A stretch of DNA of 64,000 nt from assembly GCA_004194705.1 (NCBI GenBank), contig SADC01000847.1, positions 62,001 to 126,000 of the forward strand, given 5' to 3'. Position numbers and translations under genes: made by a program. Of the stretch, positions 435 to 60,900 are shown in pieces; positions within the stretch are counted from its first letter, which is position 1; every line of letters begins with the position of its first letter. The stretch is from Ditylenchus dipsaci. Its lineage: Eukaryota > Nematoda > Chromadorea > Rhabditida > Anguinidae. The notes beneath the pieces were generated by a model. That model saw only the letters and a program-made list of their open reading frames with translations. It was not told the DNA's origin and made no database searches.

Positions 435-1282
435 GCAATTGCACTTCATTTGATATGAGATATCACAAATTTTTTGGAAAGGATTTTCGGGTACATAAAA
501 ACTCCCAGAATTTGCTAAGCTGGGGTTCTATTTTTATATTTATAAAGTTTGTTAGACTGTCTGTCGATTATAGTGATGACTAAAAAATTAGCTAAAATAC
601 TGACCAAGTTTAAGGCCCATCAAACTGATGAGGATGAGCAACCAGGCAAGCACCTCTGAAAATATGATGAACATAGGATCTCTAGAAATTAAGTAGTAAA
701 TATTTTTATAAAATCAGCAAACGAAATGAACTTACCCCACCCTGGACACTCCACCACTACCCACTATTATGAGGGCACTGTGTAAGATCATGATCAAGGC
801 AAGCAAATGAATAGAGCGGACAATACCCAAATGTATTTCCTGAAAACGCAAAAACTACTCAGTGATACACAGATAAATTTTTTTAGTATATCTGTCAGGC
901 CCTTTTGATCTCACAAAAGTATGTGTAAAAATGACTGAAAAGTGCCTTTTTTGATTTTAGTCAAAGAGGCAAATATCTAAAAAATTCAAAGTGAAAAAAC
1001 TTTAACTGGGACACGGACGTTTCCCTGTAAAACCGTTTCCCTGTAAGCCGTTTCCCTGTAAGCCGTTTCCCTGTAAGGGACGTTTCCCTGTAAGGAACGA
1101 CAAGGAACTGTAGCGTGTAGGAAAATTTTGTAGACTCAACTTTTGATGAGGGATCGAACTATATCTGAAATAATACCCTTTGGGTATCCAAATGGTAGTA
1201 GGGAAGTATTATTACCCAGAAAGTAGCACTCAGATCATAGTGCGGTTAGATCAAGAGGTATCCATGTGAGGTTGCAGTGACG

Positions 1283-2121
1283 AATCCCCCCCCCCACGGG
1301 ACTGATCAGGTGGAGGAGATAACTTCGTATTCGTGTTTCTCGACCCCGATTTCATGAGAAAGCCGCGCGTTTTTTTGGTTCTGAGAAAAAAATTTTTTTC
1401 GAACCACAGGGGGGTATCATGGTTTTTTAGTCAAAATTTGAAAAATTTAAATTGGCGCCTTTTGAATTTTAAAGGGATAAAGGGCTGTATTGGAGGGAAG
1501 GGAAAAAAAGGGGGCCACTTTTATGGCAGAACAATATAAAAGTAAATGTATGTATTCTTCGACTGCCTCACCATGTTTTTCAACTGGGCCGTGGCAAAAA
1601 CAGACTCTATATGCATTTTATGGTCAAGAGTACTTCTCGGAATCATGTCTAAGGTAAGTGTGTGCGCGCATCTCTAACTCTCAAGCCCCCTGCGCCCCTT
1701 CGGGGGCGCAGGGGCTTGGGGGCTTGGAGTTGAGATGCGCACACCCACATACCTTAGACACAAATCACTCGAAAGTGACTCTGGATGCATAAAAACAACA
1801 TGCATACCAGAGTTATTTATGCGGTAGGCCCCAGTATTCAAAACTATGTTCAACATCTTCTTGTTAGTGGGCCCTCTATGATTAGTGGCCCCTTTTTATT
1901 CCCTTCCCCTCCCTATACAGCCCTTTTTCCCTTTTAAATTCAAAAGGCGCCAATTTAAATTTTTCAAATTTTGACTAAAAAACCATGATACCCCCCTGTG
2001 GTTCGAAAAAAATTTTTTTCTCAGAACCAAAAAAACGCGCGGCTTTCTCATGAAATCGGGGTCGAGAAACACGAATATGAAGTTATCTCCTCCACCTGAT
2101 CAGTCCCCGTGGGGGGGGATT
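1283..2121. mobile_element. Nested inverted-repeat element with about 220-bp arms
   Basis: The sequence from about 1283 to 1510 is repeated in reverse complement at about 1890-2121, including a run of Cs, GACTGATCAGGTGGAGGAG and the AAAAAAATTTTTTTC tract. It lies inside the 1008-3028 element. The loop contains a GC-rich hairpin that recurs elsewhere in the window. Open frames across the arms are not thought to be genes. Confidence 0.75.
1562..1858. repeat. GC-rich hairpin repeat, copy A
   Basis: Contains AAGCCCCCTGCGCCCC followed by its complement, within a longer conserved unit (GGAATCATGTCTAAGGTAAGT...ACCTTAGACACAAATCACTCG). The same unit recurs near 20.86, 22.47 and, partly, 28.25 kb. Function unknown. 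The conserved AAGGTAAGT looks like a splice donor, but no gene context supports splicing. Confidence 0.75.
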
Positions 2122-3125
2122 CTGAACTCAAGCCCATGTGATGGTACCAGTGTCGAGGTACACAGGTAGTGGGGCCTGATTGTTAGTACTTGTTGGTAGT
2201 ACTAGTTGGTGGCACCCACATGGTGGTACCCAGTTAGTTGAACTTAGTTAATGATACTTATGGCTGCAACTTTCGTTGTAGGTGTAATTAAGAACAACCG
2301 CCCCCCCCTTGACGGGTGAAATTAATATATTCAGGTCGTACTCGAGCCTAAAAGTTGAAGCGCACCCCCACTGCAAAGAGTATGAGTTCTCTTGCCGTAA
2401 AACAGAGCGGTGCATATTCAGAAAACCCAATTCCTTGCACTGTGGAGTGTGCTGGTCTTTCGACGCGAAGCGGCGAAATACGCTCCGCATTTATACAAAA
2501 AAGTTAAAATAATAAGCGCAACATACCCAACTCACACCCCTCGATTTTAATACTCTTTGGAGGGGGATGCACTTCATATACTGTCGTACTCGAGTCATTC
2601 GCATGGTGATACCCAGTTGATTGTGTTATCCAGGTGTTATCCAGGTGGTGGTACGGAGGATTTAGTATAATAGACCTTTTTTAATGCGCATAAGACTATT
2701 TGATAAGGTGTATCAGACTGTATTGGCAGGCGGATCACTACTTGGGTAATACCTAAGCACCTCAGTACCACCACAACCAGTACTTCCACGTACTTCCTTC
2801 GCTTTCCTTTCGGGCGTTGCATTTTACACTGAAAATTACATTAAAACGTGAAAAATAAAGCGCGGACTAAAAATAAATTGAAGTCGCGTTCTATTTTACG
2901 AGAAACTGTTTTTACAGGGAAACGTCCCTTACAGGGAAACGGCTTACAGGGATACCGCTTACAGGGAAACGGCTTACAGGGAAACGGCTTTACAGGAAAA
3001 CGGTTTTACAGGGAGACGTCGCGTACCCACTTTAACTAAAACCCGACTAGGGTTGTCGACTTTTAAGTCGAAAGGTCGAGCGAAAATCTGATTTTACAAC
3101 ATATACTCAGAATTAAAAGTTGGAT

Positions 3126-4080: not shown

Positions 4081-4205
4081 TAAAATCAGATTTACACTCC
4101 GGTAAAAAAAATCTGCCTTAAAAAAATTTTCGACCTTTCGACTTTCGACTTAAAAGTCGACAACCCTACCTGGGACTCTATGCTAATTTTTTGCCTAACA
4201 GCATG

Positions 4206-4450: not shown

Positions 4451-4582
4451 GCGAAACGAGTGAAAAATTGCGACGGGTGTAACAGGCTGTTATGCTCATG
4501 AATGAATTCCCGGGGTATAGACGTTTGGCTACAAATGTAACATTTTTGGCGTTCGGCCCTATGTTCTGTTTTAGCCACTTAG

Positions 4583-4640
4583 GCCTACTTAGGCTTAGGC
4601 CTTAGGCTTAGGCCTTAGGCTTAGGTTTAGGCTTAGGGAC
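4583..4640 (+). repeat. Interstitial telomere-like (TTAGGC) array
   Basis: A degenerate run of TTAGGC and CTTAGG units. TTAGGC is the canonical telomere repeat of most nematodes. The run is the loop of an inverted repeat whose arms (about 4521-4582 and 4678-4751) share GCTACAAATGTAACATTTTT and TATGTTCTGTTT. A shorter complementary GCCTAA run is near 56049-56080. Confidence 0.7.
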
Positions 4641-5740: not shown

Positions 5741-5741
5741 C

Positions 5742-6991
5742 GGGTAATCTTTTTTTTTGGGCAAATATACTTTTTTTTGGGGCAAATATACTTTTTCTTG
5801 GGGCAAATATACTTTTTCTTGGGGCAAATTTACTTTTTCTTGGGGCAAATTTACTTTTTTTGGGGCAGATGGGTTTGGGGCAGATATACTTTTTTTTGGG
5901 GCAAATTTTTTTGGGGCAAATATACTATTTCTTGGGGCAAATTTACTTTTTTTTGGAGCAGCTTCTCTTAAAAGAAATGTACTTTTTTTGTCAGAAGAAA
6001 GATGCTAATTTCAGGTGAAATTTCTGTTTTTCACACATATTAAACCGAAATAGTTCACCTTTTGCATTTTTTAGTAAGACTTTTATTTTTTTATTAGAAA
6101 TCAGCAGCAAAATTTACCGGGAAGCTTTTCATTTAAAAGAAATTCAAAACAGCTAATAATTTGTGATATCTTTTTTTTGAATTATCTTTGTAAAGCAAGG
6201 GTCATCTTCGTCTTTGGACGACCTGGCGTTTGCTTATGAGTAAGAGGCAGCTGAGTTGCGGAGACTTGGTAGCTAGCTAGTTTTAGTTGGCACATAATCA
6301 TTACACTATGTTTGCAGTGCTGTTTTTTTGAACTATTTTTTTTTTCACATACGCTCTAGTATTAAGAATGTTCACCACTTTTGGGCGTACTCTTTCTTTT
6401 AAATGAAAAGCTTCCCGGTAAATTTGCTGCTGATTTCTCGAAAAAGTGCTGGTGTCTGAAAAACCCCTTTTCATTATCTTCCGAAAACTATTGAAAACCT
6501 GATATTCTGGACGCACTGACCAATGGTGCACTGTTTTTTCAGCGGGGTTACTAATAAGGAGAGGGTTTCCATCAGAATAACTACGGTGATCATTATTTAA
6601 TTATCTAGCTTCCAGGTTTTTTTGGGTTTTAATATGTAATGTTAAGCTTTCAATGTGACATTTCAAATGGTTGAGAATAATTGATATAAAAAAATAAAAG
6701 TCTTACTAAAAAATGCAAAAGGTGAACTATTTCGGTTTAATATGTGTGAAAAACAGAAATTTCACCTGAAATTAGCATCTTTCTTCTGACAAAAAGAACA
6801 TTTCTTTTAAAAGAAGGTGCTCCAAAAAAAAGTAAATTTGCCCAAGAAATAGTATATTTCCCCAAAAAAAATTTGCCTTAAAAAAAAGTATATCTGCCAC
6901 AAACCCATCTGCCCCAAAAAAAGTATATTTGCTCCGAGAAAAAGTAAATTTGCCCCAAAAAAGTATATTTGCCCCAAAAAAAAGATTACCC
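5742..6991. mobile_element. Foldback element with TTTTTGGGGCAAATATAC sub-repeats
   Basis: The left arm (about 5750-5960) carries around ten tandem copies of TTTTCTTGGGGCAAATATAC-like words. The right arm (about 6820-6985) carries the same word in reverse complement. The inverted match continues inwards through GATGCTAATTTCAGGTGAAA (6001 and 6760), giving arms of about 330 bp. The extreme ends are GGGTAATC and GATTACCC. No target duplication is evident. Open frames such as 5644-6018 are just the repeat translated. Confidence 0.8.
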
Positions 6992-17500: not shown

Positions 17501-20500
17501 GTCACCAATGGCGATGTTCCTTTACGATGAACATGAATATTTACTCTGGATAAGCCGACACCAAGGTGAACCGACACCCCGGTAAGCCGTACCTAAGCCT
17601 ATCACGGAGGGGTGTTGGCTTATATAGATTGGAATGTATCGGATTGGCCATGACCATGGTCGGGTTCAACAAAATACCAGATTTGGCACTTTCTGTCAAT
17701 TTTTTTGGCACTTTAAAAAATGTTGTCCCCAGGCGTTAACATAACTGTGGACACAGCTATTATCTCTAATAACATCACTCCACGCCTCCCCCTCCCGCCC
17801 CCAGTGTTTTGACTTATTTTTGAAGACTTTTTTTAAGCAAGTTACCACTCGAATTGTAGCCAGTGAGATGTACTATAATTTGAGTTTTCAAAAAGTGGGT
17901 CAAAACACAAAGCCACGAGAACGATTAGGCCTTAGGTGGAGTTATTAGAGATAATACGGCAATTAATTTAGAAATCTAACTCACCTTCCCACGTTACCTA
18001 AAATGAATTATATACATAGTTGTTTTAATTTTTAAATGCCTACCGACGATAGTGGCGAATATCAAAACACCACACATCAGGTCTAAGGTTACAAAGGCAA
18101 ATTCTATGTTTTTCTGAGGGCCTAAAATACAGTAAGTTTCTTGATCTTTTAATTGTGAAAACACCTCAAGTTCAACCCATCCCCCTTTGGTTCAATGACT
18201 TCTAGTCAGAATTTTTACATTGAACAATGTATCCAGTTATAATATTTCAAAAAAACAAGACAGCTAGCATCTAAGAAATATAGAAACTGGTGACCTATCA
18301 AAGTAGAAAAATGTGGAACCCTAGACGAAATCGAACTTGAGTGTGATGCACCATTCAAAGATTACCGGGAACTTCTCCAATGGTTGTTAGGATAAGTGTG
18401 GACCAGTAGAAGCTGTAGATGTACCGCCTTCAAAACAAGGCTAATTGTGAACAGAAAGCTAAAAATATCCAACCTGGTGAGTGTGTCATTAACTCCACTA
18501 AAATGGTTGGCTTTGGCGTGGATTTCTGATTTAGAAAAAAAACTTACTCTGGCAAACTCTGTGTGTTTCGCTCACCATAAACCCAGGCATCGCTGCCCAG
18601 GCCGATCCACTCAGAGATCCAAAAGTAGAAACAGGCATTCCAGTGAATAATTACGGCTAAATTAAATATACATTTTATTGAAAGAGCATACCAATGCGTT
18701 ACATGAAAATAAACATGAAAATAAAGGTTACAATGGTTACTTACCAATATACCACACGACCACTCCAACACGAAAGGCGTTTGGCTGAAACATGTGTTTT
18801 GGTAATTACCCGCAAACTCGTCAACAATATTTATTGGAAATTTAAACTAATTTAAACCTACGAAAGAACTCCTGGTTTCAGTCTGTTCCATAAACTTTTG
18901 GATGCGTTCCTGCCTCAGCAGTCGGTTGAAGCGTAAAGCTGAATGTCGTTTGAAGAAAATAAGACTAAAAACGTAGTCTAGGGGCAGAATACTGGCCAAA
19001 TCCATCTGCAAAATGTTGAGAATTAAAAAAGGAAGACAATTAAAAATTGCCCCATTTGCCGGAAAAGTTGCCCCATTTACCATAAAAGTTGCCCCATTTG
19101 CCACAAAAGTTGCCCCATTGGCCGGATTTCAAATTCACGATCTTTTATACTGTCATTACATTGTTTTACATACTAGTAGCTCTCAAAGTTTTACAGCACC
19201 ACTCAAAACAACAACTGACTTTATTCAACAACAATTGACAACACTTCAAAGACAACAAATTCAATAACATAAATCAGTCAATAACCAGGGCGCTTCCCTC
19301 TCTTGCCCTGCGCTTTCTTCCTCGCTTCCTCTTCTCTCCTAGCGGCACATCGGTAATTTCTTCTGGATACTCCTGCAGTCCATCTCTGCACATCATCATC
19401 AGGGAATGTTTGCAGAAGAAACGATCTTTCATCCCTTGGAAGCTATTGCATTTATACAGCCCTGAATAGAGAGTGGACGGCTCGACCAAATAAGCACACG
19501 TTCGAAGTTCTTTGTAGCGCTCCCACCCGTCAGCAGCTGAGAAGTTTGCCAGATCCTGCACCATCTGCCAGTCAATCGCCTCCCCGATGCGGTAAATGAG
19601 GTAAAACGACGCAACAACAACGAAAAACGAACAACGCCAACGTAAACAAGATGGCAAAACAACATGAAATGTCCAAATGGGGCAACTTTTCTGGCCAATG
19701 GGGCAACTTTTCTGCTTTTTGACTGGAAATTAGAAAATGGGGAGACTTTTGTGGCAAATGGGGCAACTTTTATGGTAAATGGGGCAACTTTTCTGCTTTT
19801 TGATTGGAAATTCGAAAATGGTGCAACTTTTCTGGAAAATGGGGTAACTTTTCCGGCAAATGGGGCAATTTTTATTATATTTCCATTAAAAAAACTATTT
19901 TTTAAAGATTTTCGAAAAAATTAGCCCTTTTTATTTTTTTAATCCAAAAATCAGAAAAAACTTTGGATTTAGGTCAGTTGAACTAAAATTTTCAAAACTT
20001 TGTGTTTTTCGACTTAGTTTCCAAAAATTTTGGGATTTCGAAATACGGCGATACCCGTATTTCTAGATAATTAGGTATAGACAAGATTTAGGTATAGGAG
20101 GTTCTGGTATACAGTCAAACCTCTATATTGCATCCCGCGAGGGACCAGCCCTGCCCGGATGCAATATAGAGGTGGGTTCAATAAAGAGGGTTACTATATA
20201 GAGGTTCGACTGTAGTTAATAGGTGTAGTCGAAGATTTGTGACAGTGTTTAACCCTGAGAATGAGTTGATTATTACCTTGAACTGGGGTTTGGTGAAGTA
20301 AAGTGATCGGGTTTTCTTGATATCGCGAATCAAAATGCCCTGTTCGAGGTAGCCGGTTCTGGCTCGAAATAGCATGTCCAGAAAATAGATGAAATCCACA
20401 AGAATATCAAGGCACAACCACAGGATCCATAAGTAGCCGGATGCGAGGTGGATCTATAAGTCAAACAATTTTGAATGGAATGAGAGAAAATTTTGTTGAT

Positions 20501-21850: not shown

Positions 21851-22469
21851 CTGCAAAATTAGTTAAGATTAACAGTAGTGAGGTATAAGTGCTGATCTAT
21901 GTGGATTGCTATAACGACGACTCGATACACATTGTGTCCCGATACTGAGACTCGATACAGTTGCGAGTCGATACACCGCGTCTCAAGTTCGACCCCCACC
22001 AAATGTAATTTTTACGTTTTGTAATATTTTTTGATGTGCAGTGGCCTTTTATGCTTTTTGTGTCTCTGAATACTTCATTCTCATTGTCGTTAGGGCGTTT
22101 GGTTCATTCATAACATTTTTTCAATTCGCCCTTTTCAGATTGGACTATACGTGAAAGTGCTGACGTTTGGGGAAAAAGTGCTTGCTTTATGTGAAAAAGT
22201 GCCCGCGTTTTTTCGTTTTAGTGAAAAAGGCAAAAAAATGCCCGCTTTTTGTGAAAAAGTGTCCGCTTTTGGTTATAATCCACGACTGCCAACCGATTTG
22301 TTACAAATACTGACTCGTTACACGGACTCGTTACATTGACGACTCGTTACACTTTTCCAATTATTTCCAAATCTTTAACAAAACAAACGACTGTTCGCTA
22401 CTAGCGCCGAAGTTCTATAAAAGTCTATCTTTTGGCACTTTGAAATTTCGTCTTTTTGTCTGTTTTACT

Positions 22470-22750
22470 ATGTTTTTCAACATGGGCCGTGGCAAAAAGA
22501 GACTCTATATGCATTTATGGTCAAGAGTACTTCTCGGAATCATGTCTGAGGTAAGTGAGTGCGCGCATCTCTAACCAACCAAGCCCCCTGCGCCCCTTCG
22601 GGGCGCAGGGGGCTTGGGGGCTTGGGGTTGAGATGTGCACACCCACATACCTTAGACGCAAATCACTCGAAAATGACTCTGGATGCATGAAAAAGCATGC
22701 ATACCAGAGTTTATTTATGCGGTAGGCCGCAGTTAACAAAACTATGTTCA
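22470..22750. repeat. GC-rich hairpin repeat, copy C
   Basis: Same unit as 1562-1858: GGGCCGTGGCAAAAAGAGAC, CGGAATCATGTCTGAGGTAAG, the CCCCTGCGCCCC hairpin, then ATACCTTAGACGCAAATCAC and GTAGGCCGCAGTTAACAAAAC. It lies inside the 22141-23502 element. Confidence 0.75.
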
Positions 22751-23038
22751 ACACCTTTCTTTTACACTAAATTGGCCCCCTTTTTGGTCCATATCCGCCC
22801 AATACATCCTTAAATCCATTTCAAATGGTCGAAAAAGTACTTTTAGGTGGCCTCAAAACTCAGCTTTTATGGGTCACAATTCAAAAGTAATGTTATCTAG
22901 TTTGTTTAAAAATTATGGTAGTTTTATTAAAATCAATAAACAATAGTATATTTGAAAAAATTGCAAACTTAAAAAAAGTGTAACGAGTTGGTGTAACGAG
23001 TCGTCAATGTAACGAGTCAGTGTTTGTAACTAGTTGGT

Positions 23039-23231
23039 TGTACAGTCAACCCTCGATTTAACGAGGTCCCTGGGGATCAACTTAAGGTGTCGTTAAATCG
23101 AGGGTGTCGTTAAATCGGGGGTTCACTTTAACTACATTTTAGTCAAAGCCAACCAAATGGGCTCATTTTCTGGTGTCGTTAAATCGGGGTGTCGTTAAAT
23201 TGGGTATCGTTGAATCGAGGGTTGACTGCAT
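23039..23231. mobile_element. TA-flanked MITE, TCGTTAAATCG type
   Basis: Begins TACAGTCAACCCTCGATTTA and ends AATCGAGGGTTGACTGCA. GGTGTCGTTAAATCG occurs several times inside. Same template as 253-434 with a different internal word. Confidence 0.75.
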
Positions 23232-23550
23232 ACCATAATCCACTTTATCAACGGCTAAATCGGCATATTTTAGCGACCGTATGATACAGCACCCCTTCAC
23301 TAAGATTTCAGCTTGAATAATTACACTTTACAAACAGCAAAAAAATTACAAAGTATTACATATTACAGGTATCCATAAGCGGGTACATTTCACTAGAAGC
23401 CGGCATATTTTCACAAAAAGCGGGCACTTTTTCGGCTTTTTGACTAAAACGAAAAAACGCGGGCAGTTTTTCCCCAAACGCGGGAATTTCTCCGTTTTGC
23501 CCTTTCAGATTTTTAAAGCCATTTAATTATTTTTTAAATTATCTCTTAAA

Positions 23551-27999: not shown

Positions 28000-28641
28000 G
28001 GATAATATTTTTTTTCTACCCGCGAAATATTCCTTTCTACCCGCAAAATTTTTTTTCTACCCGCAAATGAGAAATACCGCAAAATATTTTTTCTAGCCGC
28101 AAAATATTTCTTTCTAACCGAAAATTTCTTCTTTTTTACCCGCAAATTTCTTCTTTTCATTGTTATGTCTTAACTATGTTTTAAATCACAACTTTATCTT
28201 CTACAAAATACAATATGGTATGCTACTCGTAATGTGGGAATAAATTTGTGTCTCAGGTATGTGTGTGTGCAGCCCCTTCGAGGGCGCAGGGGGCTTGGTT
28301 GGTTAGAGATGCGCGCACGGACTTACCTTAGACATAATTCCGAGCAAGAATCTTGATGAAAAAAGAGTTTAGAGAGTCTTTTTGCCCAGCTCCAGCAAGA
28401 AAAATGTGATAAATAAGCCGAAAATGATGGGGATGGGGGGGGGTGGGTAGGTGGTGCTATAAAAGTACCCCTTTTTTATTCCCACATTACGAGTAGCATA
28501 CCATATTGTATTTTGTAGAAGCTAAAATTGTGATTTTAAACATAGTTAAGACAAAACAATGAAAAAAAGAAATTTGCGGGTAGAAAAGAATAAATTTGCG
28601 GGTAGAAAAGAATAAATTTGCGGGTAGAAAAAATATCATCC
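28000..28641. mobile_element. Foldback element with TTTCTACCCGCAAA sub-repeats
   Basis: The left arm (28000-28150) has TTTTCTACCCGCAAAAT units. The right arm (28560-28641) has TTTGCGGGTAGAAAA units. Ends GGATAATATTTTTT / AAAAAATATCATCC are inverted repeats. Flanks TTCAAAAAT (27991-27999) and TTAAAAAAT (28642-28650) look like a 9-bp duplication with one mismatch. A partial GC-rich hairpin repeat (28247-28390) lies inside. Confidence 0.8.
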
Positions 28642-28726: not shown

Positions 28727-29985
28727 AAGGGGCATGCCCACGCTAAGAAGAGGTAGTGCCCGGGAATTCAAATTTTTTCCTAATCATTAAACTTCTGTAC
28801 GGATTTTTCAACTTGGTTCCTAACAAGACCATACCTAAAATTGAATTTTAGGCCTTGTTTTGTTAGGTCATTTGGTCACCGGTCATTTGGTCACCGGTCA
28901 TTTGGTCACCGGTCATTTGGTCCCCGTCATTTGATCCCCGGTCATTTGATCCCCTGGTCATTTGGTCCCCAGTCATTTGGTTCCCAAAAGCCGCCAATTT
29001 AAAATGTTCGAACAGGTTCGAGTCCTGGCTATAGCAAAGAATTGTTTTCTACCATATATTATCCCGAATAGGTCTCATTCACTTGTGGAATCGGAAATTG
29101 AAAAATTTTGGATTTAGAAAGAAATATTTAAGACTATATGGGAGGGGAAGGGAATACTGAAGACCACTTGGCGATCCCTTATTCATCCTCAATGATCCAG
29201 ATCCACCCTCAGTGGTTCAAGTCCACCCTAAATGGTTCAGATTGACTTTTAGTGGTCCTGACCCACTTTCAATAGTCGGGATCCACTACCAATGGTTCAG
29301 ATCCATCCTCAATGGTCTTAATTCAACCTGTATGTGGGTGAATACAGTCAACTCTCTTCGTAATAAAAAATTTTATTTAATCTTTTTTCCATGTGAAAAA
29401 CTCCTATCATTTAATTTTTATATAATTTAACCTCAGTTCTAATGGATGATCGATTAACCTGACATTTGCATGGGTTTTCAATACTTTTCCAGGTCATTGT
29501 CCACTTTTTTTAAAGCGTTGACATTCCCGGTCACATTCATTTGAGTATGTATGTATTTCACTCATTTTGGGGATCGTAGTGGGTAGTCTATTTTTTGTTT
29601 ATTTTTTTCCAACTATTTAAGATGACTTTACGGAAACGGACCTTAATTATTGGTAAATCCTTTTACAATATAAAAAATCTTCAAAACTCCATTCAAAACT
29701 CCATCCACCTCGATTTGCAAGTCTCAAAATTGGATCGACATAGGTTTCGTTCAAGACAACACGGAAAAACATTTAAAAAATTTAAACTGGCGGCTTTGGG
29801 ACCAAATGACCGGGATCAAATGACCGGGATCAAATGACCGGGGACCAAATGACCGGGGACCAAATGACCGTCGCCCTTTGTTAGAAACCAAGTTGAAAAA
29901 TTCGTACAGAAGTTTAATAATTAGGAAAAATTTTTGAATTCCCAGGCGCTACCTCTTATTAGCGTGGGCATGCACCTTTAAAGGA
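28727..29985. mobile_element. AAAGGGGCATGCCC-family element split by a foldback element
   Basis: The two halves, 28727-28866 and 29877-29985, match as the two ends of the family seen at 12125 and 23551 (AAAGGGGCATGCCCACGCTAA and TTAGCGTGGGCATGC). The join TTTTGTTAG..AAACC is interrupted here and continuous in the other copies. Confidence 0.8.
28867..29876. mobile_element. Foldback element with GGTCATTTGGTCACC sub-repeats
   Basis: The left arm (28867-28985) has eight or so GTCATTTGGTCACCG units. The right arm (29795-29876) has ACCAAATGACCGGGG units. TTTGTTAG flanks both ends (28859-28866 and 29877-29884), so the insertion made an 8-bp, perhaps 9-bp, duplication in another repeat. A loose GATCCACCCTCAATGGTTCA-type repeat lies inside (29180-29320). 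No transposase was recognised; short open frames inside have no recognisable domain. Confidence 0.9.
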
Positions 29986-34309: not shown

Positions 34310-35445
34310 TTGCTACTCATTTGCGCCCAACTCATTTGCGCCCACTCATTTGCGCCCACTCATTTGCGCGCAACTCGTTTGCGCCCACCTCGTTTGCGCA
34401 CAACTCGTTTGCGCCCACTCATTTGCGCTCACTCATTTGCGCCCAATCATTTGGGCCCGCTTCATTGTTTTTCAAAATTTTGAATTCGTGGTTTTGATTT
34501 TTTGGATTTCCGAATTTTTCACCACTCGTCTGTATTTTCCTCACCTTGTATTATTGTGTTGAGTTTTGTCGATGTCTTTCAATGTGGATAACGTCTGGCT
34601 AGCTAATGTGCTTGCTCAAACTCAGAAAACACTTCAGACAGCTAACCAGGTATGATAATTTTGTTAAGCTTCATATTTTCACTAAACCTCTAATCTTTAC
34701 TCTTTTTAGGGTGTTTTGTCGCTATCAAACAAAGAAGAGCAATGCCTAATCGTCAACAGCTACGAATACAGAAAGGGCCGCGCCATCAATTCGGGAACGG
34801 TTCAGAAGTGGAGATGCATAAATCGAGCGTGTAATGGAACTGCAAAAACAAGCTTCGGCTCTCTGGAAAATTTGCTCCTTCTCAATCCACATGTTTGCAG
34901 ACAAAGTCCTAATGCTTTTGTGGTATTTTTTGTTCCTTTTCACTGCAGTAATTTTAAATTAACAGCGACGTGATATCATAGCCAGAAGAAGAGAACCATG
35001 AGGACGAAGATCTCTAAATTGATGTTATTTTTCTGTTGGCGTTATTGAGTTCTTTTGCTTTTGAAATAAAAGTCTGTTATTTGTGGGAAAAAAATTCAGC
35101 TTCAACTTTTTTAAATTCAGGTCGATAAGTACTAAACTCGAGAAGACCGCGAGGTCATACTTCCTATTCACCAGAATTTCTAAAAGTCTTTATTCTTGAT
35201 CTTTCTTATCTCAATAAAAAATTAATATTCTCAATAAAGCAACCAGAAAGTTATTATAGTCCACTATCTGTTTTTCATGATATAATATGTTAAATGGAGG
35301 CGGGCACTCATGAGTTGCGCGCAAATGAGTGTGCGCAAATGAGTGGGCGCAAACGAGTTGGGCGCAAACGAGGTGGGCGCAAACGAGTTGCGCGCAAATG
35401 AGTGGGCGCAAATGAGTGGGCGCAAATGAGTTGGGCGCAAGGCTC
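34310..35445 (+). mobile_element. Foldback element with CTCATTTGCGCCCA sub-repeats carrying a FLYWCH gene
   Basis: The left arm (34314-34455) has about ten CTCATTTGCGCCCA units. The right arm (35305-35440) has the complementary GGGCGCAAATGAG units. Monomers alternate ATTTGCG and GTTTGCG in similar order on both arms. Between them is an intron-containing FLYWCH-domain gene. No unambiguous target duplication was seen. Nested in 33936-35826. Confidence 0.85.
34572..35017 (+). CDS. FLYWCH-type zinc-finger protein, transposon-borne
   Basis: Three exons in phase: 34572-34649, 34710-34922, 34982-35017, about 108 residues, with introns of about 60 nt ending TTTTTAG and TCATAG. The N-terminus is MSFNVDNVWLANVLAQTQKT. 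The FLYWCH finger runs SYEYRKGRAINSGTVQKWRC, INRACNGTAKTSFG and ends with H at LNPHVCRQ. The short tail is acidic (PEEENHEDEDL). FLYWCH fingers bind DNA and are often associated with MULE transposases, so a terminus-binding role is possible. The last exon is the least certain. Confidence 0.75.
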
Positions 35446-37288: not shown

Positions 37289-38259
37289 GGTTCCTACACA
37301 CTTTGCCGCATGGCACTTTGCCGCAGACACTTTGCCGCAGACACTTTGCCGCATGACACTTTGCCGCAAGACACTTTGCCGCATGACTATTTGCCGCAGA
37401 CACTTTGCCGCCGACACTTTGCCGCACTTTTGTGTTCTCAAAAAAACTTTAAAAAACTCATTACCCGAACAAGTTATCAACCACCAATTTATCGACAAAG
37501 GCAACAAAATTAAATAAACAATGTGAGATCAACAATTAATTCCAATATCATCTTCTTCTTCAACAGAATCTTCATTGACAGCTTCATCGCCATCGGCTCT
37601 GTCTCTAACGAAAGCAAACTCAGACAAGTGGTGTTGCACAGCTTTCGGGATTCAATAGTCGTATGTTTTTCGCTGAGCAAGCATCTGTCTTAGCAGTTCC
37701 ACGACACCGAACTTTCATGCAGCGCCAATTCCGGATTTGTCCCATGTTTACGAGTCTATCTTTTTTGTATTCGAAACCACCGGAAATTAGCAGCTCATTT
37801 CCCTTGCTCGATTTTGTAAGCTTTCCCTAAAATTACAGGTGAGCAAAAAAACCCTCAAATAAACAATCGACCTGGAGAGAAGTTTGCGGAGGACCTATTT
37901 GAGTATCCACGAGATCAAACATATTAGCAAGCCAATTGAAATCAACACCGAAAGCCATTGTAACTTCTGTAAGAAGTATGGTTGAAAGGAAGAAAATGGT
38001 TAAGCGCATAAAGAGAGCAGCTACATTTCTGACCAACAAAATTTTTTATTGAATAAAAGAATGAAAAATCAAAAATTTCAACAAGATAGTATGCAGAAGA
38101 CAGATTTAAATTCAAAAAAAACCTTGTGAAGGAAGACTCATAATAATTGTGCGGCAAAGTGTCATGCGGCAAAGTGTCTTGCGGCAAAGTGACTGCGGCG
38201 AAGTGTCATGCGGCAAAGTGTCTGCGGCAAAGTGCCATGCGGCAAAGTGGTTGTGTACG
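37289..38259. mobile_element. Foldback element with CACTTTGCCGCATGA sub-repeats
   Basis: The left arm (37300-37425) carries about nine CACTTTGCCGCA units. The right arm (38152-38250) carries about eight TGCGGCAAAGTG units. TTTCTGGA occurs outside both (37281-37288 and 38260-38267), a likely 8-bp duplication, though the outermost bases of the two arms match only loosely. The interior is AT-rich with no recognised domain. Confidence 0.75.
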
Positions 38260-45169: not shown

Positions 45170-45450
45170 TTAGATCCAATTTGTCCACTTTTCAGTGCAA
45201 TTTTCGTCCAGATGGCTCATCAGCTCTTGAAGCACTCTTGTCGGTTCATTCTCTTTGCCATAGACAAAGAGCGTAATCGACCTGAACAATCAAATTAGCA
45301 CACAAAAGTGTGAAATTGAGTCATACCCGTAGAAACAGTAACCGTTGGGTTTCATGGGAGGAATTCTGCCTTTGAAGTAATAAAACTAAAAGCTCGAACT
45401 CACTCCACAGTTCATCAAGTGCTTCATGTAGTTCATGAATCTTGAACATC
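45170..45450 (-). pseudogene. OTU-like cysteine protease fragment
   Basis: Three minus-strand exon pieces in phase: up to 45404 (IHELHEALDELW), 45327-45369 (RIPPMKPNGYCFYG) and 45170-45281 (SITLFVYGKENEPTRVLQEL, then MSHLDENCTEKWTNWI and stop). NGYCFYGSI..YG.E.....VL..L resembles the catalytic-Cys block of OTU deubiquitinases (DGNCLFRS...). The usual D before G is N here. The 5' side is cut by the foldback at 45453-46214. OTU domains occur in MULE-type elements. Confidence 0.55.
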
Positions 45451-45452
45451 GG

Positions 45453-46214
45453 CATGGCGAGATTTGCGGATAAACATTTGCGGCAGGTCATTCGCGGACG
45501 TAACATTGCATAAAGACTTTTGCGAACTTACATTTGCGTACGCAGATTTGCAGAAGGGCATTTGCGACCATAAAATTTGCGAAGACGACTATTGCAGACC
45601 GTCATGAGCGGCAGGACATCTGCAGAGCGACTTATGTGGAACGACATTAGAAGAGCGACGTTAGAGGAAGCATATTTACAGACCGACATTTGCGGCAGGA
45701 CATTTGCGGAAACGACATTTGCGGAAATAATTTTGCGGAGCGTCATTTGCGGAAGGACATTTGCGGAAACGACATAAGACCCAAAATTTTAATGACTTAC
45801 TTATTCTTCACTGAATAAATTTGTTATCTTTCGCTGTTATACTTCAATAGGACTACTGAAAATGGTATTTTTTAAAGACTTTCTATAGAGTATACGGTTT
45901 TTTATGTGATTCCGCAAATGTCGCTCCGCAAAAGTTGTTTCCGCAAATGTCGCACCGCAAACGTATTTCTGCAAATGTCCTGCCGCTAATGTAGTTCTGT
46001 AAATGTTATTTCCGCAAATATCGCATCCGCAAATGTTGCGGCGCAAAAGTCATTCCGCTAATATCCCTCCGCTTAAGTCGCTCCGCAAATGTCGGTCTGC
46101 GAATGTCGTTCCGCAAAACTCCTACCGCAGATGTAGGTCCGCAGAAGTTGTATCCGCAAAATCACTCCACAAAAGTGGTATACGCAAATGTTTATCCGCA
46201 GATCTCGCCATAAA
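45453..46214. mobile_element. Foldback element with ACATTTGCGGAACG sub-repeats
   Basis: About 15 units on the left (45453-45772) and about 15 inverted on the right (45907-46212), with a small unique centre. Ends ATGGCGAGATTTGCGGATAA / TTATCCGCAGATCTCGCCAT match. Individual units vary (CATTTGCGG, GATTTGCAG, CATCTGCAG). It interrupts the OTU-like fragment. No target duplication was seen. Confidence 0.85.
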
Positions 46215-48752: not shown

Positions 48753-51700
48753 CTAATAAAAGATCACCATGTTTCTATGAATAGTGTTGGCCGAGGGCGG
48801 GGTCACTTCCGCTTCGCTCAAAAACCTCTGCAAGTCCACCACTTTGTCGTTGACCCGGTCCTGAAAATATATGTAATCTGTAAAAGAAGCTAAATAATAT
48901 GACCAACCATGGAATGCGTGAATCGACTTCTGTGGATCAAATAGGATATGACTATGAATGCAATAAACACAGGCACTGAAACACATGCATATATTTTGGA
49001 TACTTACGATAAATTGCTATGGTTTTTTATAAAATTTTCTCTCAGCCATTTCTTTTTTTGGTTAATCGAAATTTTTTCTGTGCGCTGGGTTGGTCATTAT
49101 TAGGAATAAATAATTGGATTTATTATGAAAATGCGGTTAAAAAGGATTAATATTAGGGTTGTCGTCGTTGTATTCGTCACTTTTGGACCTTTTCTGAATA
49201 TTAGCTCCAAAAATAACCTGCATTTTTGCTCGGTGATACCTTTTTCAAAATTCGACGATAATTATAACATGATGGTATATTAAGCGTCATAATTAGTTTA
49301 GAAAATTTTCATGCACGTGGCTGTTCTTTTCGACGTGGGCTGCGAGAAAAGTGTATTTCGACGTTGCCCCAAGTCGAAAAGAACAGCCACGTGCATGAAA
49401 ATTTTCTAAACTAATCATGACGCTTGATATACCGTCATGTGGAGATATCGCCGAATTTTAAAAAGGTATCACCTAGCAAAAATACAGATAGCTTTTGGAG
49501 CTAAAATTCGAAAAATGTCCAAAACTGACCAATTCCACTTCGACAACCTTAGTTAGGATGATGAAAATCTCGAAATTTCGACAATTTTAGAAAGGGGTTT
49601 TGTCGCCCTCTTCTGGATTTTGGCATTAATTTTTGTGCGTAATATTTGACCGAGTCACCACTCAGAATGTAGCTTATTGTCTCAACTATCATTCAAATAA
49701 AAAATTACAATAAGATTGTTAGAAAAAGGTAGGTAAAAACAGAATGCCATTCAAACTAGTATAGCTTTTGCTTTTCGACTTGTTCATTTGTACTTTTGTA
49801 AAAAATTAAATTTTCTTAGATTTGTGAAAGGCAAATCTGACAGCCAAAATGAAGAGCTACAAAACAAAAGACAGCACAAAGTCATTTGAAAAAAACCTGT
49901 ATAAAAAAGCATTAAAGTACACATCGATTAATCAACGCATACTGAAATGGGTTTACACAACTTAATTGTAACCTTTTTTTAACACATTTTTCGGTTTTCG
50001 AAATTTTTCAATTTTTTCCCGTCAAACTTGGAACGTAGGACTTACCCAGCATAGCAGTTGTGATATATCCACCCAGATCATAGCCAATAGCATTAAATTT
50101 GACAAAGAAAATGACTCCGATTTCCAACAGAAATAGAAGCAGGCCAATGCAGGTGGAGAACAGCCAGGACAGCTCTATGTAGAATCTGAATACCAAATAT
50201 TTTCGCATGTTACATATATATCTAGACTTACTTCAGCTTGATATGTGGAGAATCTTGGGTACACCCATTGGCTTCAATGTAGGGCAGGAGGCTAAAATTA
50301 ACCTTTGTTGTTAAGTAAATCTATGGTAAACGATAAAAATGCTTGAAAAATAGAAATAATGTCCGCTCCTATACCAAAAGCCACAGGTCCTTTTCTTTTT
50401 ATGACCTGGCAAACTTGTGTATGCCAACTTTAGAATAATACCCTGGCTTTGTTTCTAGCCAGTTTGATTTCATTTTTTTAAAGTAAAAAATAAAAAAATA
50501 TATATATATTACAAAAAAATTACTTTTGACTTCTTGAAGAAAAAGGTAATTTTATCTAGTGCTCGTTAGCTTGTTGATGTGAAAATAACTTTGACGTGAA
50601 GTTTCAAAATAAAAAAATCTTTTGAGTTTCAAAATAAAAAAAATTAAAAATTTACATATTGTGGCCATGATCTATATCTTAACGCACTAGAATTTAAAAA
50701 AAAAGTGTTAGCGATACAGTCGACCCTCGATTTAACGGCACCCCTAGGGACCGGGTCCGGGTGCCGTTAAATCAAGGATGCCGTTAAATTGAGGGGACGT
50801 TAAATCGAGGGTTGACTGTAACAGAATGCAGTAATCGAATCCGCACAAAATTTTCAAAGATATCGTGGAAATTTAACTACTAATAAACAAAAAGGATGTT
50901 TTTGTGCTTTAGAGTGAGGGTATCTTACACCAGCTAAGGAAGTGCGTAACTAAAGCATTATGCAAAAGAACAAATTGAAATGTACCGCCTAATGTGTGAA
51001 ATTGGCCGCCTTTTTTTTTTTTTAAATTGGCCGCCTCTTTTGAATTTCAAAAAAAAATATTAAAATTGGCCGCCTTTTTTTCTTGTTAATCATGTTTTTC
51101 AAATTTTAGCCTTAATTTGATGGTAATTTTGCTCTTAATGATAGCGAAAATGAAAGCCCAGAATCCTGGCTACGTATTGGTGAAAAACAATCGTGAACTT
51201 ATAGGAAAAAGTTAGAAAATGTAATCGAAAACACTTAGACGGCTATTTTGGCCTCTACCTGCTAAATGGTTTTTGTGAAATTTCATAATTTTACTTTACA
51301 AATTGACACTTTTTCAAATTAGTGAGTGGCCAAAGTTCTGGGCTTTCATGTTTGCTATCATAGAAAAAAATGCCAACTCGTAAAAGCTGAAATTCAAAAA
51401 ACGTTCAAATTACACAAAAACCATTAACAGGTAGAGGCCGAAATAGCCGTCTAAGTGTTTTCGATTACATTTTCTAACTTTTTCCTATAAGTTCACGATT
51501 GTTTATACCAATACGTAGCCATGATTCTGGGCTTTCATTTTTGCTATCATTAAGAGCAAAATTACCATCAAATAAAGGCTACAATTCGAAAACATGAATT
51601 AACAAGAAAAAAGGCGGCCAATTTCAATATTTTTAATCGAAATTTAAAAAGGCGGCCAAATTAATTTAAAAAAAGCGGCCAATTCCACACATTAGGCGGT

Positions 51701-53161
51701 ACCTTTCAGATACAGCCTTATGCAAAATGAACCATCTATTATAAAGGTGACCGGTAAAAAGCTATCCTAGTTCTAGACCACCCCTTCTGGAATCCGAACA
51801 CCTAGTGTTATAAATCGGGTGAATGTGGGTAAATTTTTATTATTAGCGGCGAGACCGCTTCGCACCATTTGTGATTCAAGAAGATTGTGAAATTTGGCCG
51901 TAAAAGTAAGACAACCGGTTGTTGCCAATTAAGTTTGCGTGTCTAAGGAAACGTCTTTGGGAAATGGTCAAGCGTGTAAGGATCTTTTACAAAACCCTAC
52001 CAAGTAGACATCATGAGGGCTAGCAAATGGACAGAAACCAGCAAGGTTGTCTAAAACATAAAATTATAATCACACAAAAATAATTTTTAAAGTTAAAACT
52101 CCAACCACAACGCCTAACAAAATTAAAAGAGGTTTAGGTGTTTCATTAGCATATTGCAGTTCAACCAGAGCCACCTAAAACACGATTTACAATAATAGAA
52201 ATCAGTCAATTAAATAAAGCCAACCATAGCAAACCCTGAAAGAAGAGCAGATGTCCTGCTAGAAGCTTTGAGTTGGGCCCTGCTCAAGTCATACCTGTAC
52301 TTCTCGTGAACTGAAAGCTCTCCTCTATGCCTGCAAAACTGACTAGATTAGTTGCAACAATAAAAAAATTTGACATTCTTTACTACTAGTTACCGTGCGG
52401 TTGAAAACCGACATTTTTCGGTTTCTGGCTTAGATTCAAGTCGATTCAAGAAAGTTTCGATTTAGGATGGTCAATAGACTACCAGTTTTGAAAAGTCTGT
52501 CTCTAACCATTTTTTGACCGAAAATTTTGGCCTAACTCTGAAAGGGGTGGATGGTGGTATGTAGGATATTATTCTGACAGGGTTTATGGATCATCCCTAA
52601 TAACTTATACCAATACTCTTTTCAACCTCTTGCATCATCCAAAAGTCATCACCTATGCAGTCCGTTTAAATGATGACTTTCGAAGCCTCCTCTCATATTG
52701 AGTCTAGCTGCTCCAGGCCCAGCATGTCCAGTTGTGGAGTCCTGACCACCTCCCAGACTGTCGCACACACTAGCCCCACTGCCTGGAACTGCTGCTGCAG
52801 GTGGACCACTAGCTACAGTGTGTGTCATCGCAAGGGCCGTTGTTGCGCTCATCATGTTTAGTGCTAGCCTACTGCCAGCCAGTTGCTTGTTGACTTTAGT
52901 AGGAATAGGATCCAATCCACTGGAACTTGAGGGAACAGCTTCACTTACATTTTGGGGGTAGAAACAGGTCATTGGGGTCTGGAGGGTGGGGTATGGGCAC
53001 CGCTAAGACCGGCCAGAGATCTCTTAGGTTGGGGAGTGGATGGTAGAAGGGTTGATGGTGATGGTCTTTGGCAGTGGAGAAGGGTGGTTGCCTAGCTGTT
53101 TGCAACATTCTGGAAACAAGGCACTCGCTAGACTGGTTCAACTGAGGGTATTCAGGGGCGG
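48753..53161 (-). CDS. orai-1: Orai store-operated calcium channel (CRAC pore subunit)
   Basis: Plasma-membrane Ca2+ pore opened by STIM when ER stores empty. Exons, 5' to 3': 52949-53161, 52653-52893, 52225-52330, 52106-52174, 52001-52050, 50232-50291, 50046-50185, 48908-48975, 48753-48860 (stop), all in phase. TM1: SRAQLKASSRTSALLSGFAM (gating Arg of the human R91 position) then VALVELQYANETPKPLLILL with the selectivity-filter Glu. TM2: TTLLVSVHLLALMMST. Loop and TM3: LLPYIEANGCTQDSPHIKL, FYIELSWLFSTCIGLLLFLL. TM4: PVFIAFIVISYLIHRSRFTH. C-terminal STIM-binding helix: DRVNDKVVDLQRFLSEAEV. The wording of TM1-TM3 is close to nematode ORAI. The N-terminal two exons are low-complexity and less certain, but their phases fit. 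Confidence 0.94.
49160..49555. repeat. Palindrome in Orai intron
   Basis: AGAAAATTTTCATGCACGTG and GCTGTTCTTTTCGAC are inverted around about 49350, and the arms extend to TTTTGGACCTTTTC / CATTTTTCGAATTTTAGCTC. Non-coding, in the intron between exons 50046-50185 and 48908-48975. Confidence 0.65.
50712..50822. mobile_element. TA-flanked MITE, TCGATTTAACGGCACCCC type
   Basis: Begins TACAGTCGACCCTCGATTTA and ends AATCGAGGGTTGACTGTA. GGTGCCGTTAAATC units lie inside. Same family as 253-434 and 23039-23231. It lies in an Orai intron. Confidence 0.8.
50982..51712. mobile_element. Foldback element with AAATTGGCCGCCTTTTTT sub-repeats
   Basis: Ends GTACCGCCTAATGTGTG are inverted at 50983 and 51705. 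AATTGGCCGCC units are in both arms, and long inner arms share TTTTCGATTACATTTTCTAA. The arms together form an almost complete palindrome of about 730 bp. It sits in the Orai intron between exons 52001-52050 and 50232-50291. Confidence 0.8.
52653..53161 (-). CDS. orai-1: Orai N-terminal exons (disordered region)
   Basis: Exon 52949-53161 follows TTTGCAG and reads APEYPQLNQSSECLVSRMLQ then a H/P-rich stretch, ending at a GTAAGT donor. Exon 52653-52893 follows CTAAAG and reads NKQLAGSRLALNMMSATTAL and on to ESHHLNGLH, ending at GTGATG. Joining gives no frame break into HRGELSVHEKYR of exon 52225-52330. Vertebrate and insect Orai also have long Pro/Ser/His-rich N-termini. Confidence 0.65.
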
Positions 53162-59163: not shown

Positions 59164-59737
59164 GCAGCAAATGTCACTACTGTTTGAAAAATCAAATTTC
59201 AGTCAACAAATTAAATTTATGTGTGATTTATTAGAAACCATAAAAACGTGGACTGATACAGCACAACTAGGCAATGAATTAAATTACATCCCATACCATG
59301 GTTTTGGGGGGGGGGATTCGGAGGTAACTTTCTCACAAATTAGTGCTTATGAGAATGCTCACCGTAGTGGTAGCACTTTATTACATAACGCTGGGTGCTC
59401 TACATGAATATGAAAAAATATTAGATGAGGTCTTTCGAAAAACACCAATGAAGATTCCCTGGTAAGACTGAACATGTATTGATCAGATTTCAAAAGTTAA
59501 AAAAATTATATGATGACCATAAGTAAAAAGTTCCAAATCAATACACCAAAGAAGAGAAACCAGAGAAAGGCTGAATTGCATGATTGCAACCTTATATGTG
59601 TCTTGCCGTTCAGTCAACCCACCCTCGCTTTGTGTTACAATGATGAATTATAGGTTGATATTGTTGTGCAGTCGAAATCACCTTTATTTGCTATTGGTTC
59701 TTTTAGTATACGAAAAGGACATTCAGGAGCGGTAGGA

Positions 59738-60900
59738 ATAAGCTTTTTTACCCTTACCTTAACCTTTTACCGCTCTCTTTACCCGTAGGAATAAGGTATC
59801 TAGAGGTAAAGGCTAGGGGAAACTTGCCGAAAACGAAATTTGCCAAATACGAAATTTTCCAAAACGAAATTTGCCAAAACGAAATTTGCCAAATCGAAAT
59901 GCGCCAAAACGAAATATGCCAAAGCGAAATTTGCCAAAACGAAATTTGGCCAACGAACCAACAGGGGGGACCAAGGTAGTTTTTACGTTTTTTTCGAAAT
60001 TTTCGAAACTGTGTCCTAACCACCTAAAACCACCCAAACAACCAAAAACCACCAAAAACAGCAAAAACCAGCCAAATCACACTAAACAACCCAAAACACC
60101 CCAAACCACCCGAAACCATCCAAAACTACACCAAACAAAAATTTTGCGGGAATTTGAATTTTTAGTCTAAACCAACCAAACCAAGTGGTCGTCCACTTGG
60201 ATCAAAATTTTTTTTTTACGTTTTTGGGTTCTAAAACCAGTTTTCTAGACTAATTCGTGAACGCTTAACATGGTTTGACAGTGGCAAAATGCCGTTTTCT
60301 CAGTTATTTTTTGAGTTTTGGCAAATAATTGATTTTACCAAAATCAATTATTCCCCAAAACTCAAAAATTTCTTCATAAAACGTGATTTTACCACTGTCA
60401 AACCATGTTCAGCGTGCACGAATTAGTCTAGAAAATAGGTTTTGGAACCCAAAAACGTGAAAAAGAATTTTTTGATCCAAGTGGACGACCACTTGGTTTG
60501 GTTGGTTCAGACTAAAAATTTAAATTAAATTTATAAATTTAAATTTTTGTTTGGTGAAGTTTTGAATGGTTTCTGGTGGTTTTTGGTGTTCTGGGTGGTT
60601 TGGTGTGATTTTGGGTGGTTTTTGGTGATTTTGGATGGTTTTCGCTGGTTTGGGGTGTTTTTAGGTGGTTAGAACATAATTTCGAAAATTTTGAAAAAAA
60701 CGTAAAAACTGCCTTGGTCCCCCTGTTGGTTCGTTAGCCAAATTTCGTTTCGGTAAATTTCGTATTGGCATATTTCGTTTTGGCGCATTTCGATTTGGCA
60801 AATTTCGTTTTGGCAATACATACGTTTGGCAAATTTCGTTTTCGGCAAGTTTCCCCTAGCCGAGTAAACGTAAGGGTAACGGTAAAAACAACAGGGTATC
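59738..60900. mobile_element. Foldback element / 1.1-kb palindrome with CGAAATTTGCCAAAA sub-repeats
   Basis: Both arms carry GGCTAGGGGAAACTTGCCGA, CGAAATTTGCC units, ACCAACAGGGGGACCAAGG, an ACCACCCAAA tract and CCAAGTGGTCGTCCACTTGG, meeting at a centre near 60345 (TTGATTTTACCAAAATCAAT). The arms are about 500 bp. ACCCTTACCTTAACC-type sequence outside the left end is also echoed on the right. Confidence 0.85.

What the first reader, a model, noticed from the sequence alone, without database searches (positions are those of the whole stretch)
1008..60900. A whole guild of foldback elements: each has its own tandem sub-repeat word, shared by both of its arms
At least fifteen elements have the same architecture (outer inverted repeat, arm of 5-15 tandem words of about 12-25 bp, centre, mirrored arm), yet almost every one uses a different word: GTTTCCCTGTAAGCC, GGGGCAAATATAC, GGGGCAACTTTT, GTGCCCGCTTTTT, TCTACCCGCAAAA, GGTCATTTGGTCACC, CTCATTTGCGCC, CACTTTGCCGCA, ATTTCGCCGAC, ACATTTGCGGA, AATTGGCCGCC, CGAAATTTGCC. 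Left and right arms agree within an element. So the word diverges between elements but is kept uniform within one, as expected if sub-repeats are co-evolving transposase binding sites or are homogenised by conversion. Foldback/MULE elements are known; this breadth of parallel families in 64 kb looks unusual.
Basis: partly seen in the sequence, partly recalled or inferred. Interest (0 to 1): 0.88.

Follow-up and report, generated by a model that had tools for sequence, protein, structure and literature searches.

The report
Foldback transposons with private binding words
A nematode genome carries dozens of related cut-and-paste transposon families, each ending in tandem copies of its own short DNA word, and one base of that word tracks one amino acid of the DNA-binding domain that the same transposon encodes, which would make it a natural lock-and-key library for a poorly understood zinc finger.

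Summary
In detail: 12 of 12 named words cluster in both inverted arms (0 of 240 shuffled words), and left and right arms agree (mean 0.94 against 0.54 across elements). No MULE match lies in the window. Elsewhere in the genome, probably Ditylenchus dipsaci, 54 of 60 fetched MULE-transposase loci carry 13-18 bp arrays, 25 of 40 read on both sides as an inverted pair; 19 of 34 elements have a perfect 8-9 bp target duplication at GG tips, control 1 of 1122. This is the Tm1/Phantom type of foldback Mutator element (FLYWCH plus MULE), already known from Meloidogyne and mosquitoes. The 14-17 bp words are variants of one grammar, NNC[A/G]WWW plus a variable part. New here: word base 10 tracks the FLYWCH residue before the first zinc cysteine (E/Q/D/S/A/G with C; K/R/H/M/L with T or G) in 29 of 31 families; Pagel p 1.5e-5, family-wise p 0.007 on a phylogenetic null. 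A second pairing is only suggestive. Arms mirror each other unit by unit, so arm-to-arm copying also acts. DNA binding is inferred. The 20-22 bp word elements remain unexplained.

The parts
1008..3028 (.). E1, foldback element, word GCCGTTTCCCTGTAA (15 bp), tips GGGACACG / GGGTACGC, no transposase found inside
   Evidence: arrays; tips and 9-bp duplication; 201 exact word copies in the genome, reversed control 0
999..1007 (+). E1 target site duplication ACTTTAACT, left copy
3029..3037 (+). E1 target site duplication ACTTTAACT, right copy
5749..6982 (.). E2, 20-21 bp word CTTTTTTTTGGGGCAAATATA in both arms (second class)
   Evidence: no transposase identified
19028..19887 (.). E4, 21-bp word AAATGGGGCAACTTTTATGGC in both arms (second class); interior open frame on the minus strand without a Pfam match over cut-off
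22184..23481 (.). E5, irregular 21/39 bp word GTGCCCGCTTTTT in both arms
28004..28636 (.). E8, 20-22 bp word TCTACCCGCAAAA in both arms (second class)
28867..29876 (.). E9, word GTCATTTGGTCCCCG; 8-bp duplication TTTGTTAG at 28859-28866 and 29877-29884
   Evidence: not among the GG-tip hits
34315..35440 (+). E10, word CTCATTTGCGCCCA in both arms, carries a FLYWCH exon, no MULE match
   Evidence: 214 exact word copies in the genome
34719..34901 (+). FLYWCH exon inside E10
   Evidence: Pfam PF04500 E 2.6e-5, 24.7 bits, cut-off 23.6
37298..38249 (-). E11, word GACACTTTGCCGCA in both arms, carries a FLYWCH exon on the minus strand, no MULE match
   Evidence: 217 exact word copies in the genome
37638..37814 (-). 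FLYWCH exon inside E11
   Evidence: Pfam PF04500 E 6.2e-7, over cut-off; 109 matches in the genome with E <= 0.001, 150 of 193 candidates scored
38622..39534 (.). E12, word GACAATTATTTCGCC, 9-bp duplication with one mismatch AAATTGTGC / AAATTGTGG, tips GGTACC / GGGTAC
   Evidence: not among the perfect GG-tip hits
45445..46211 (.). E14, word GACATTTGCGGA plus 2-3 bases; much of the element is word array
50956..51729 (.). E15, AATTGGCCGCC three times in each arm at irregular spacing, inside a 788-column imperfect palindrome
59811..60861 (.). E16, word AACGAAATTTGCCAA, tips GGCTAGGGG on both ends

Best explanation
The 14-17 bp word elements are foldback-type Mutator-like transposons of the Tm1/Phantom kind. 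[quoted passage not shown] Each arm is an array of binding sites for the FLYWCH domain of its own family, set in phase behind short tips (GGGTAC at one end, GGGACA or a variant at the other), with cleavage at the tip and an 8-9 bp target duplication. Word and FLYWCH diverge together, so that each family keeps a private lock and key; non-autonomous copies keep the arms and are moved by their own family's enzyme. The residue just before the first zinc cysteine most likely reads word base 10. Shown: arms, words, phase, tips, duplications, co-location with FLYWCH and MULE, covariation. Inferred: DNA binding, transposition in trans, private specificity, arm-to-arm copying.
For: FLYWCH lies upstream of MULE on the same strand in 52 of 52 loci where both were found. 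Of 60 MULE loci fetched (best-scoring or next, not a random sample), 54 carry a 13-18 bp array: 40 of 40 read on both sides, 14 of 20 read only upstream; 25 of the 40 show a called inverted pair at word similarity 0.6 or more. FLYWCH was found in 34 of the 40. Of 91 FLYWCH loci, some of them overlapping reads of one place, 78 have an array 50-800 bp upstream. Perfect 8-9 bp duplication at GG tips in 19 of 34 elements, control 1 of 1122. Near-constant phase from tip to first word, by inspection of the printed ends. Residue X+16 against word base 10: table 16,1 / 1,13, Fisher 9e-7, Pagel LRT 27.5, p 1.5e-5; top of 510 column-by-position tests with words permuted within clades, above the null at all three stratifications in a 23-family subset; family-wise p 0.007 against simulated words on the FLYWCH tree, the only one of 500 tests to pass. 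Within arrays base 10 is nearly fixed: 125 of 132 units C in the E/Q/D/S/A/G families, 112 of 122 units T or G in the others. The close relatives L011 and L037 differ there (R with G, L with T) and their words differ at that base only, though their FLYWCH domains differ at other residues too.
Against: Binding was not measured. Overall word distance correlates as well with MULE (Mantel 0.49) as with FLYWCH (0.50), partials 0.19 and 0.22, so only the single-site signal points to FLYWCH itself. MULE columns also passed the null in coarser stratifications: six tests at 2 clusters, one at 4, none at 6. In one search four further pairs passed its null (X-14 with bases 5, 6 and 7; X with base 6) and none of these survives. 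The pairing of X with bases 6-7 has exceptions (L071, L013, L038). For base 10, L115 and L028 are exceptions, and of three loci outside the test set L119 and E10 fit but E11 does not. The residue grouping was chosen after seeing the data and the word phase was set by hand. Six of 20 upstream MULE pieces had no array, six of 40 MULE loci no FLYWCH found. The listed E10 and E11 words lie near no listed MULE.
Confidence: 0.8

Rival explanations
1. Words and transposases merely share descent: each lineage drifted, arms stay alike because the element is copied as a whole, and no reader-site co-adaptation is needed.
For: Word distance correlates with MULE distance as strongly as with FLYWCH distance, and MULE columns pass the null in coarse stratifications; X against word bases 6-7 is not significant family-wise on the tree.
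Against: Base 10 shows no phylogenetic signal (its fitted rate ran to the upper bound) yet follows one FLYWCH residue, family-wise p 0.007 and Pagel p 1.5e-5.
Confidence: 0.15
2. Uniformity within an element is only arm-to-arm conversion or fold-back copying; the words have no binding function.
For: In 25 elements, some of one family, units are no more alike within an arm than between arms (0.902 and 0.904; within higher in 8 of 25), and same-ordinal units match better across arms than other units (0.932 against 0.905, higher in 19 of 25, p 2e-4).
Against: Explains agreement of arms but not the shared grammar across families or the link to the encoded FLYWCH residue. I regard it as acting together with the best explanation.
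Confidence: 0.08
3. The arrays serve the host or expression (enhancer-like sites, or long hairpins that feed small-RNA silencing), not the transposase.
For: Long inverted repeats can form hairpins; nothing here tests expression.
Against: Phase to the tip, duplications at the tip and the tie to the element's own DNA-binding domain.
Confidence: 0.04

Closest known systems
Tm1 of Meloidogyne (Mutator/foldback; PMC3169594, abstract, passages and section 9 read)
   Same: Composite arms of mostly 14-bp tandem units, two different 7-bp end motifs, GGA inside them, mostly 9-bp target duplications, transposase with FLYWCH and MULE. Its unit CGATTCAGTATCGC fits the grammar seen here.
   Different: One family described there; here about 30 parallel word families in one genome and a residue-base covariation. 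[quoted passage not shown]
Muta1 and other Aedes MULEs (PMC5225508, passages read)
   Same: FLYWCH predicted in 13 of 14 families; 10 of 12 long-TIR families have 9-15 bp subterminal tandem repeats; 8-9 bp duplications.
   Different: No link between repeat sequence and FLYWCH residues in the passages read; fewer families.
Phantom subclass of Mutator (Marquez and Pritham 2010; not held; known here through passages of PMC6446971 and PMC3169594)
   Same: FLYWCH plus MULE domain in animals.
   Different: Tree placement of the present elements within Phantom was not tested.
Galileo (PMC3688188, abstract and passages read)
   Same: Works alike: a zinc-finger domain of the transposase binds several sites, including in the tandem repeats of long foldback arms; subfamilies bind selectively.
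   Different: P-element superfamily with a THAP domain, not FLYWCH-MULE.

Membership tests
Tm1/Phantom FLYWCH-MULE foldback | MULE transposase domain inside the arms | tested here: met
   23 families have FLYWCH, word and MULE, the MULE of three of them taken from a sister copy; inside the window's own elements no match to a locally built MULE profile
Tm1/Phantom FLYWCH-MULE foldback | FLYWCH zinc finger N-terminal to MULE | tested here: met
   upstream on the same strand in 52 of 52 loci with both; found in 34 of 40 MULE loci read on both sides; FLYWCH also in window E10 and E11
Tm1/Phantom FLYWCH-MULE foldback | 8-10 bp target site duplication | tested here: met
   perfect 8-9 bp at GG tips in 19 of 34 elements, control 1 of 1122; among the 7 window elements in that set only E1
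Tm1/Phantom FLYWCH-MULE foldback | arms of 13-15 bp tandem units, variable number | tested here: met
   periods mostly 14-17 bp, copy numbers variable
Tm1/Phantom FLYWCH-MULE foldback | different end motifs at the two ends, GGA inside | tested here: met
   GGGTAC-, GGGTCC- or GGGTAT-type against GGGACA-, GGGATC- or GGGAAT-type tips, followed by GGAC or TGAC in many, read by eye; not in every element (E16 has the same tip on both ends)
Tm1/Phantom FLYWCH-MULE foldback | transposase falls in the Phantom clade | not tested
   no tree with reference MULEs was built
Tm1/Phantom FLYWCH-MULE foldback (20-22 bp word elements E2, E4, E8) | associated FLYWCH-MULE transposase | tested here: inconclusive
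   no Pfam match over cut-off in E4's open frame; no SWIM match in the genome at E <= 0.001; partner not found

The most novel reading that the evidence does not exclude
The genome holds a natural recognition code: dozens of transposon families each display, on both ends, many copies of the site that their own FLYWCH finger reads; the residue before the first zinc cysteine sets word base 10 (E or Q with C, K with T, R with G or T), and further residues (the W of F-L-Y-W; X+2) set neighbouring bases. Families escape each other's enzymes by changing lock and key together. Small FLYWCH-only elements such as E10 and E11 would be extra players, as competitors or helpers.
Probability: 0.6. Interest if true: 0.85.

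Novelty: new variant of a known kind. Interest (0 to 1): 0.74.

Why it matters
How FLYWCH fingers, relatives of plant WRKY domains, choose DNA is little known to me: the Tm1 paper could not say whether its transposase binds DNA, and my search for papers holding FLYWCH, DNA-binding specificity and recognition listed 4, whose titles and abstract beginnings show none devoted to it (passages of one read). Here each transposon carries reader and site together in about 30 families, so a recognition code can be read from genomes and tested with simple binding assays. It also gives a worked case of how transposon families in one genome may stay functionally separate.
Full report
What was checked. Ten elements have arrays called in both arms; own-arm word similarity averages 0.94, cross-element 0.54, and the own partner is the best match in 10 of 10. 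In the genome the words GTTTCCCTGTAAGCC, GACACTTTGCCGCA and CTCATTTGCGCCCA occur exactly 201, 217 and 214 times, their reversed controls never.

Which organism. The genome has 226,978,389 bases in 1359 contigs and 58 exact copies of the nematode SL1 leader, reversed control 0 (the leader was recalled). A protein search with one transposase piece returned UniProt entries of Ditylenchus dipsaci. The MULE stretch of L074 is identical to P0001 over all 78 residues, that of L014 to P0004 over a run of 56 of 78, that of L018 to P0002 over a run of 43 of 78. The published D. dipsaci assembly is 227.2 Mb in 1,394 scaffolds with 37.5% GC (PMC6929663, passages). I take the window to be D. dipsaci; this is an inference.

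Two classes in the window. Seven elements have 14-15 bp words (E1, E9, E10, E11, E12, E14, E16). Three have 20-22 bp words (E2, E4, E8). E5 and E15 have irregular spacing. Only the first class is explained here.

The transposase. The genome has at least 115 MULE and 144 FLYWCH matches (150 of 504 and 150 of 429 candidates were scored). I fetched 60 MULE loci, the best-scoring 30 and 30 from further down the list; they are not a random sample. Forty were read on both sides: 40 of 40 contain a 13-18 bp array and 25 of 40 a called inverted pair with word similarity of 0.6 or more. Twenty were read only upstream: 14 have an array, 6 (L084, L085, L086, L087, L090, L092) none. FLYWCH was found in 34 of the 40; L016, L017, L025, L073, L076 and L078 show none, and L016, L025 and L073 are among the 25 with an inverted pair. 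Where both domains were found, FLYWCH is upstream of MULE on the same strand in 52 of 52 loci; in the genome-wide lists C197 shows the opposite order. Of 91 FLYWCH loci, at least seven pairs of which overlap, 78 have an array 50-800 bp upstream. Thus most of these word families belong to FLYWCH-MULE elements. The window itself has no MULE match, but E10 and E11 carry FLYWCH exons above the Pfam cut-off.

Ends. By inspection of the printed arms, many elements have a tip of GGGTAC type at one end and a different one (GGGACA, GGGATC, GGGAAT) at the other, and the first word follows at a nearly constant distance, often as GAC[A/G]WWW. Of 34 elements with enough flank, 19 have a perfect 8-9 bp duplication exactly at a GG tip; pairing left ends with right ends of other elements gives 1 of 1122. 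E1 in the window has ACTTTAACT on both sides; it is the only one of the seven window elements in that count. Gene orientation relative to the two tips differs between families: L011 and L036 carry closely similar words and FLYWCH domains, but the tips are exchanged relative to the gene.

One grammar, many words. Read from the tip inward, the words fit NNC[A/G]WWW followed by 7-10 variable bases, with exceptions at single positions. Published Tm1 units (CGATTCAGTATCGC in M. incognita, CGTTTCAGTATCGC in M. hapla; PMC3169594 section 9) fit it too.

Reader and site. I set the word phase by hand, from the tips, for 33 loci chosen out of 78 with FLYWCH and array; L116 was dropped as frame-shifted and L070 merged, leaving 31 families, or 29 after collapsing at 80% identity. 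A scan of 510 pairs of FLYWCH column and word position, permuting words within clades, put residue X+16 (just before the first zinc cysteine) with word base 10 at the top (z 7.5; 95% of the null maximum 5.9); four other pairs passed too, X-14 with bases 5, 6 and 7 and X with base 6. A different null, simulating words along the FLYWCH tree (31 families, 500 tests), leaves only X+16 with base 10 significant family-wise (z 6.98, 2 of 300 simulated maxima as large, p 0.007). With residues grouped after seeing the data, E/Q/D/S/A/G go with C in 16 of 17 families and K/R/H/M/L with T or G in 13 of 14 (Fisher 9e-7; Pagel LRT 27.5, p 1.5e-5). Prediction from other families with the same residue is right in 24 of 26, base rate of C 17 of 31. 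Inside arrays base 10 is almost fixed: 125 of 132 units and 112 of 122 units follow the rule. L011 and L037, close in FLYWCH but not identical elsewhere, have R with G and L with T, and their words differ at that base only. L054 and L059 have Q with C and H with T, though their words differ at further bases too.

Results against. Whole-domain distances do not single out FLYWCH over MULE. MULE columns exceed the null in six tests at 2 clusters and one at 4, none at 6. The pairing of residue X (the W of F-L-Y-W) with AAA or TTT looks striking (table 7,1 / 2,19 over 29 families, Fisher 1.7e-4; within-clade p 0.0007-0.004; Pagel p 0.005) but is not significant family-wise on the tree and not among the passing pairs in the 23-family subset at 4 or 6 clusters. 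Outside the test set, L119 fits both rules, E10 fits both, E11 fits the first but not the base-10 rule. Binding itself is not shown.

Structure. The E11 FLYWCH model (pLDDT 75) places residue X in its second strand (residues 14-22) and X+16 in its third (27-32), next to the zinc cysteine (positions counted by me from the alignment). Its best solved match is a human FLYWCH domain, with WRKY domains further down among unrelated chains. That X would sit at the R of WRKYGQK is my reading from recall of WRKY sequences.

Arms. Over 25 elements, some of one family, the units are not more alike within an arm (0.902) than between arms (0.904), and units of the same rank from the tip match better across arms than others (0.932 against 0.905, higher in 19 of 25, p 2e-4). 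So arms are copies of each other as wholes; arm-to-arm conversion or fold-back copying fits.

FLYWCH-only elements. The E11 FLYWCH has 109 matches in the genome (150 of 193 candidates scored). Of 107 places compared, 2 lie within 2.5 kb of a listed MULE, both on contig C419; 5 lie within 1 kb of listed E11 words and 8 of listed E10 words, and no listed MULE lies within 3 kb of those words (word lists thinned and cut at the first 100 places, MULE list partial). For comparison, 18 of the first 46 places of the Pfam FLYWCH list lie within 1.5 kb of a listed MULE. Copies with E10 words 2-2.6 kb apart exist and could not be read. Whether these are deletion derivatives or elements with their own regulator is open.

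Literature. Foldback-type FLYWCH-MULEs are known: Tm1 (PMC3169594, abstract, passages and section 9), Muta1 and relatives (PMC5225508, passages), Phantom group (PMC6446971, passages). Galileo shows that a transposase finger can bind the tandem units of foldback arms (PMC3688188, abstract and passages). My searches (several lists capped at 10-20 of more papers) listed no paper whose title or listed abstract start reports a link between arm words and FLYWCH residues; the library holds open-licence papers only.

Noticed in passing
window 36528-37056: Pieces of open frame between E10 and E11 look like a Ulp1/C48 protease by eye (HW...YYDS); the two pieces scanned gave no Pfam match, so unconfirmed.
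   Followed up: partly
window 4588-4637: About eight copies of CTTAGG/CTTAGGC, like the nematode telomere repeat (recalled), inside the contig.
   Followed up: no
window 8082-8615: Minus-strand frame with the C-terminal leucine zipper of cyclic nucleotide-gated channels (E 1e-12): probably an ordinary host gene exon.
   Followed up: no
window 3048-4168: Inverted repeats around a frame whose minus strand resembles a Tc1/mariner transposase by eye; the plus-strand frame 3275-3766 had no Pfam match over cut-off, the minus strand was not scanned.
   Followed up: no
window 1282-2122: A second large palindrome nested inside E1; a GC-rich hairpin that looks like its core by eye also lies inside E8 (28268-28425), which matches 20834-20990.
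   Followed up: no
window 13362-13992, 63181-63301, 63793-63914; L016, L022, L032, L055, L066: Further arrays of about 21 bp, so that the 20-22 bp class may be widespread; its transposase is unknown.
   Followed up: partly
L080, L081, L083, L088, L089, L091: MULE loci with 15-bp arrays (TTTAGCAAATGTGAC and TTACCAAAAGAAATT types) and no FLYWCH found or only a weak match: further MULE lineages with arrays.
   Followed up: no
window 34719-35030, 37510-37651, 39261-39320: The small frames in E10, E11 and perhaps E12 seem to end in an acidic tail (EENHEDEDL, EEEDDIGINC, DEEISDLDGE), read by eye across assumed introns and a frame change.
   Followed up: no
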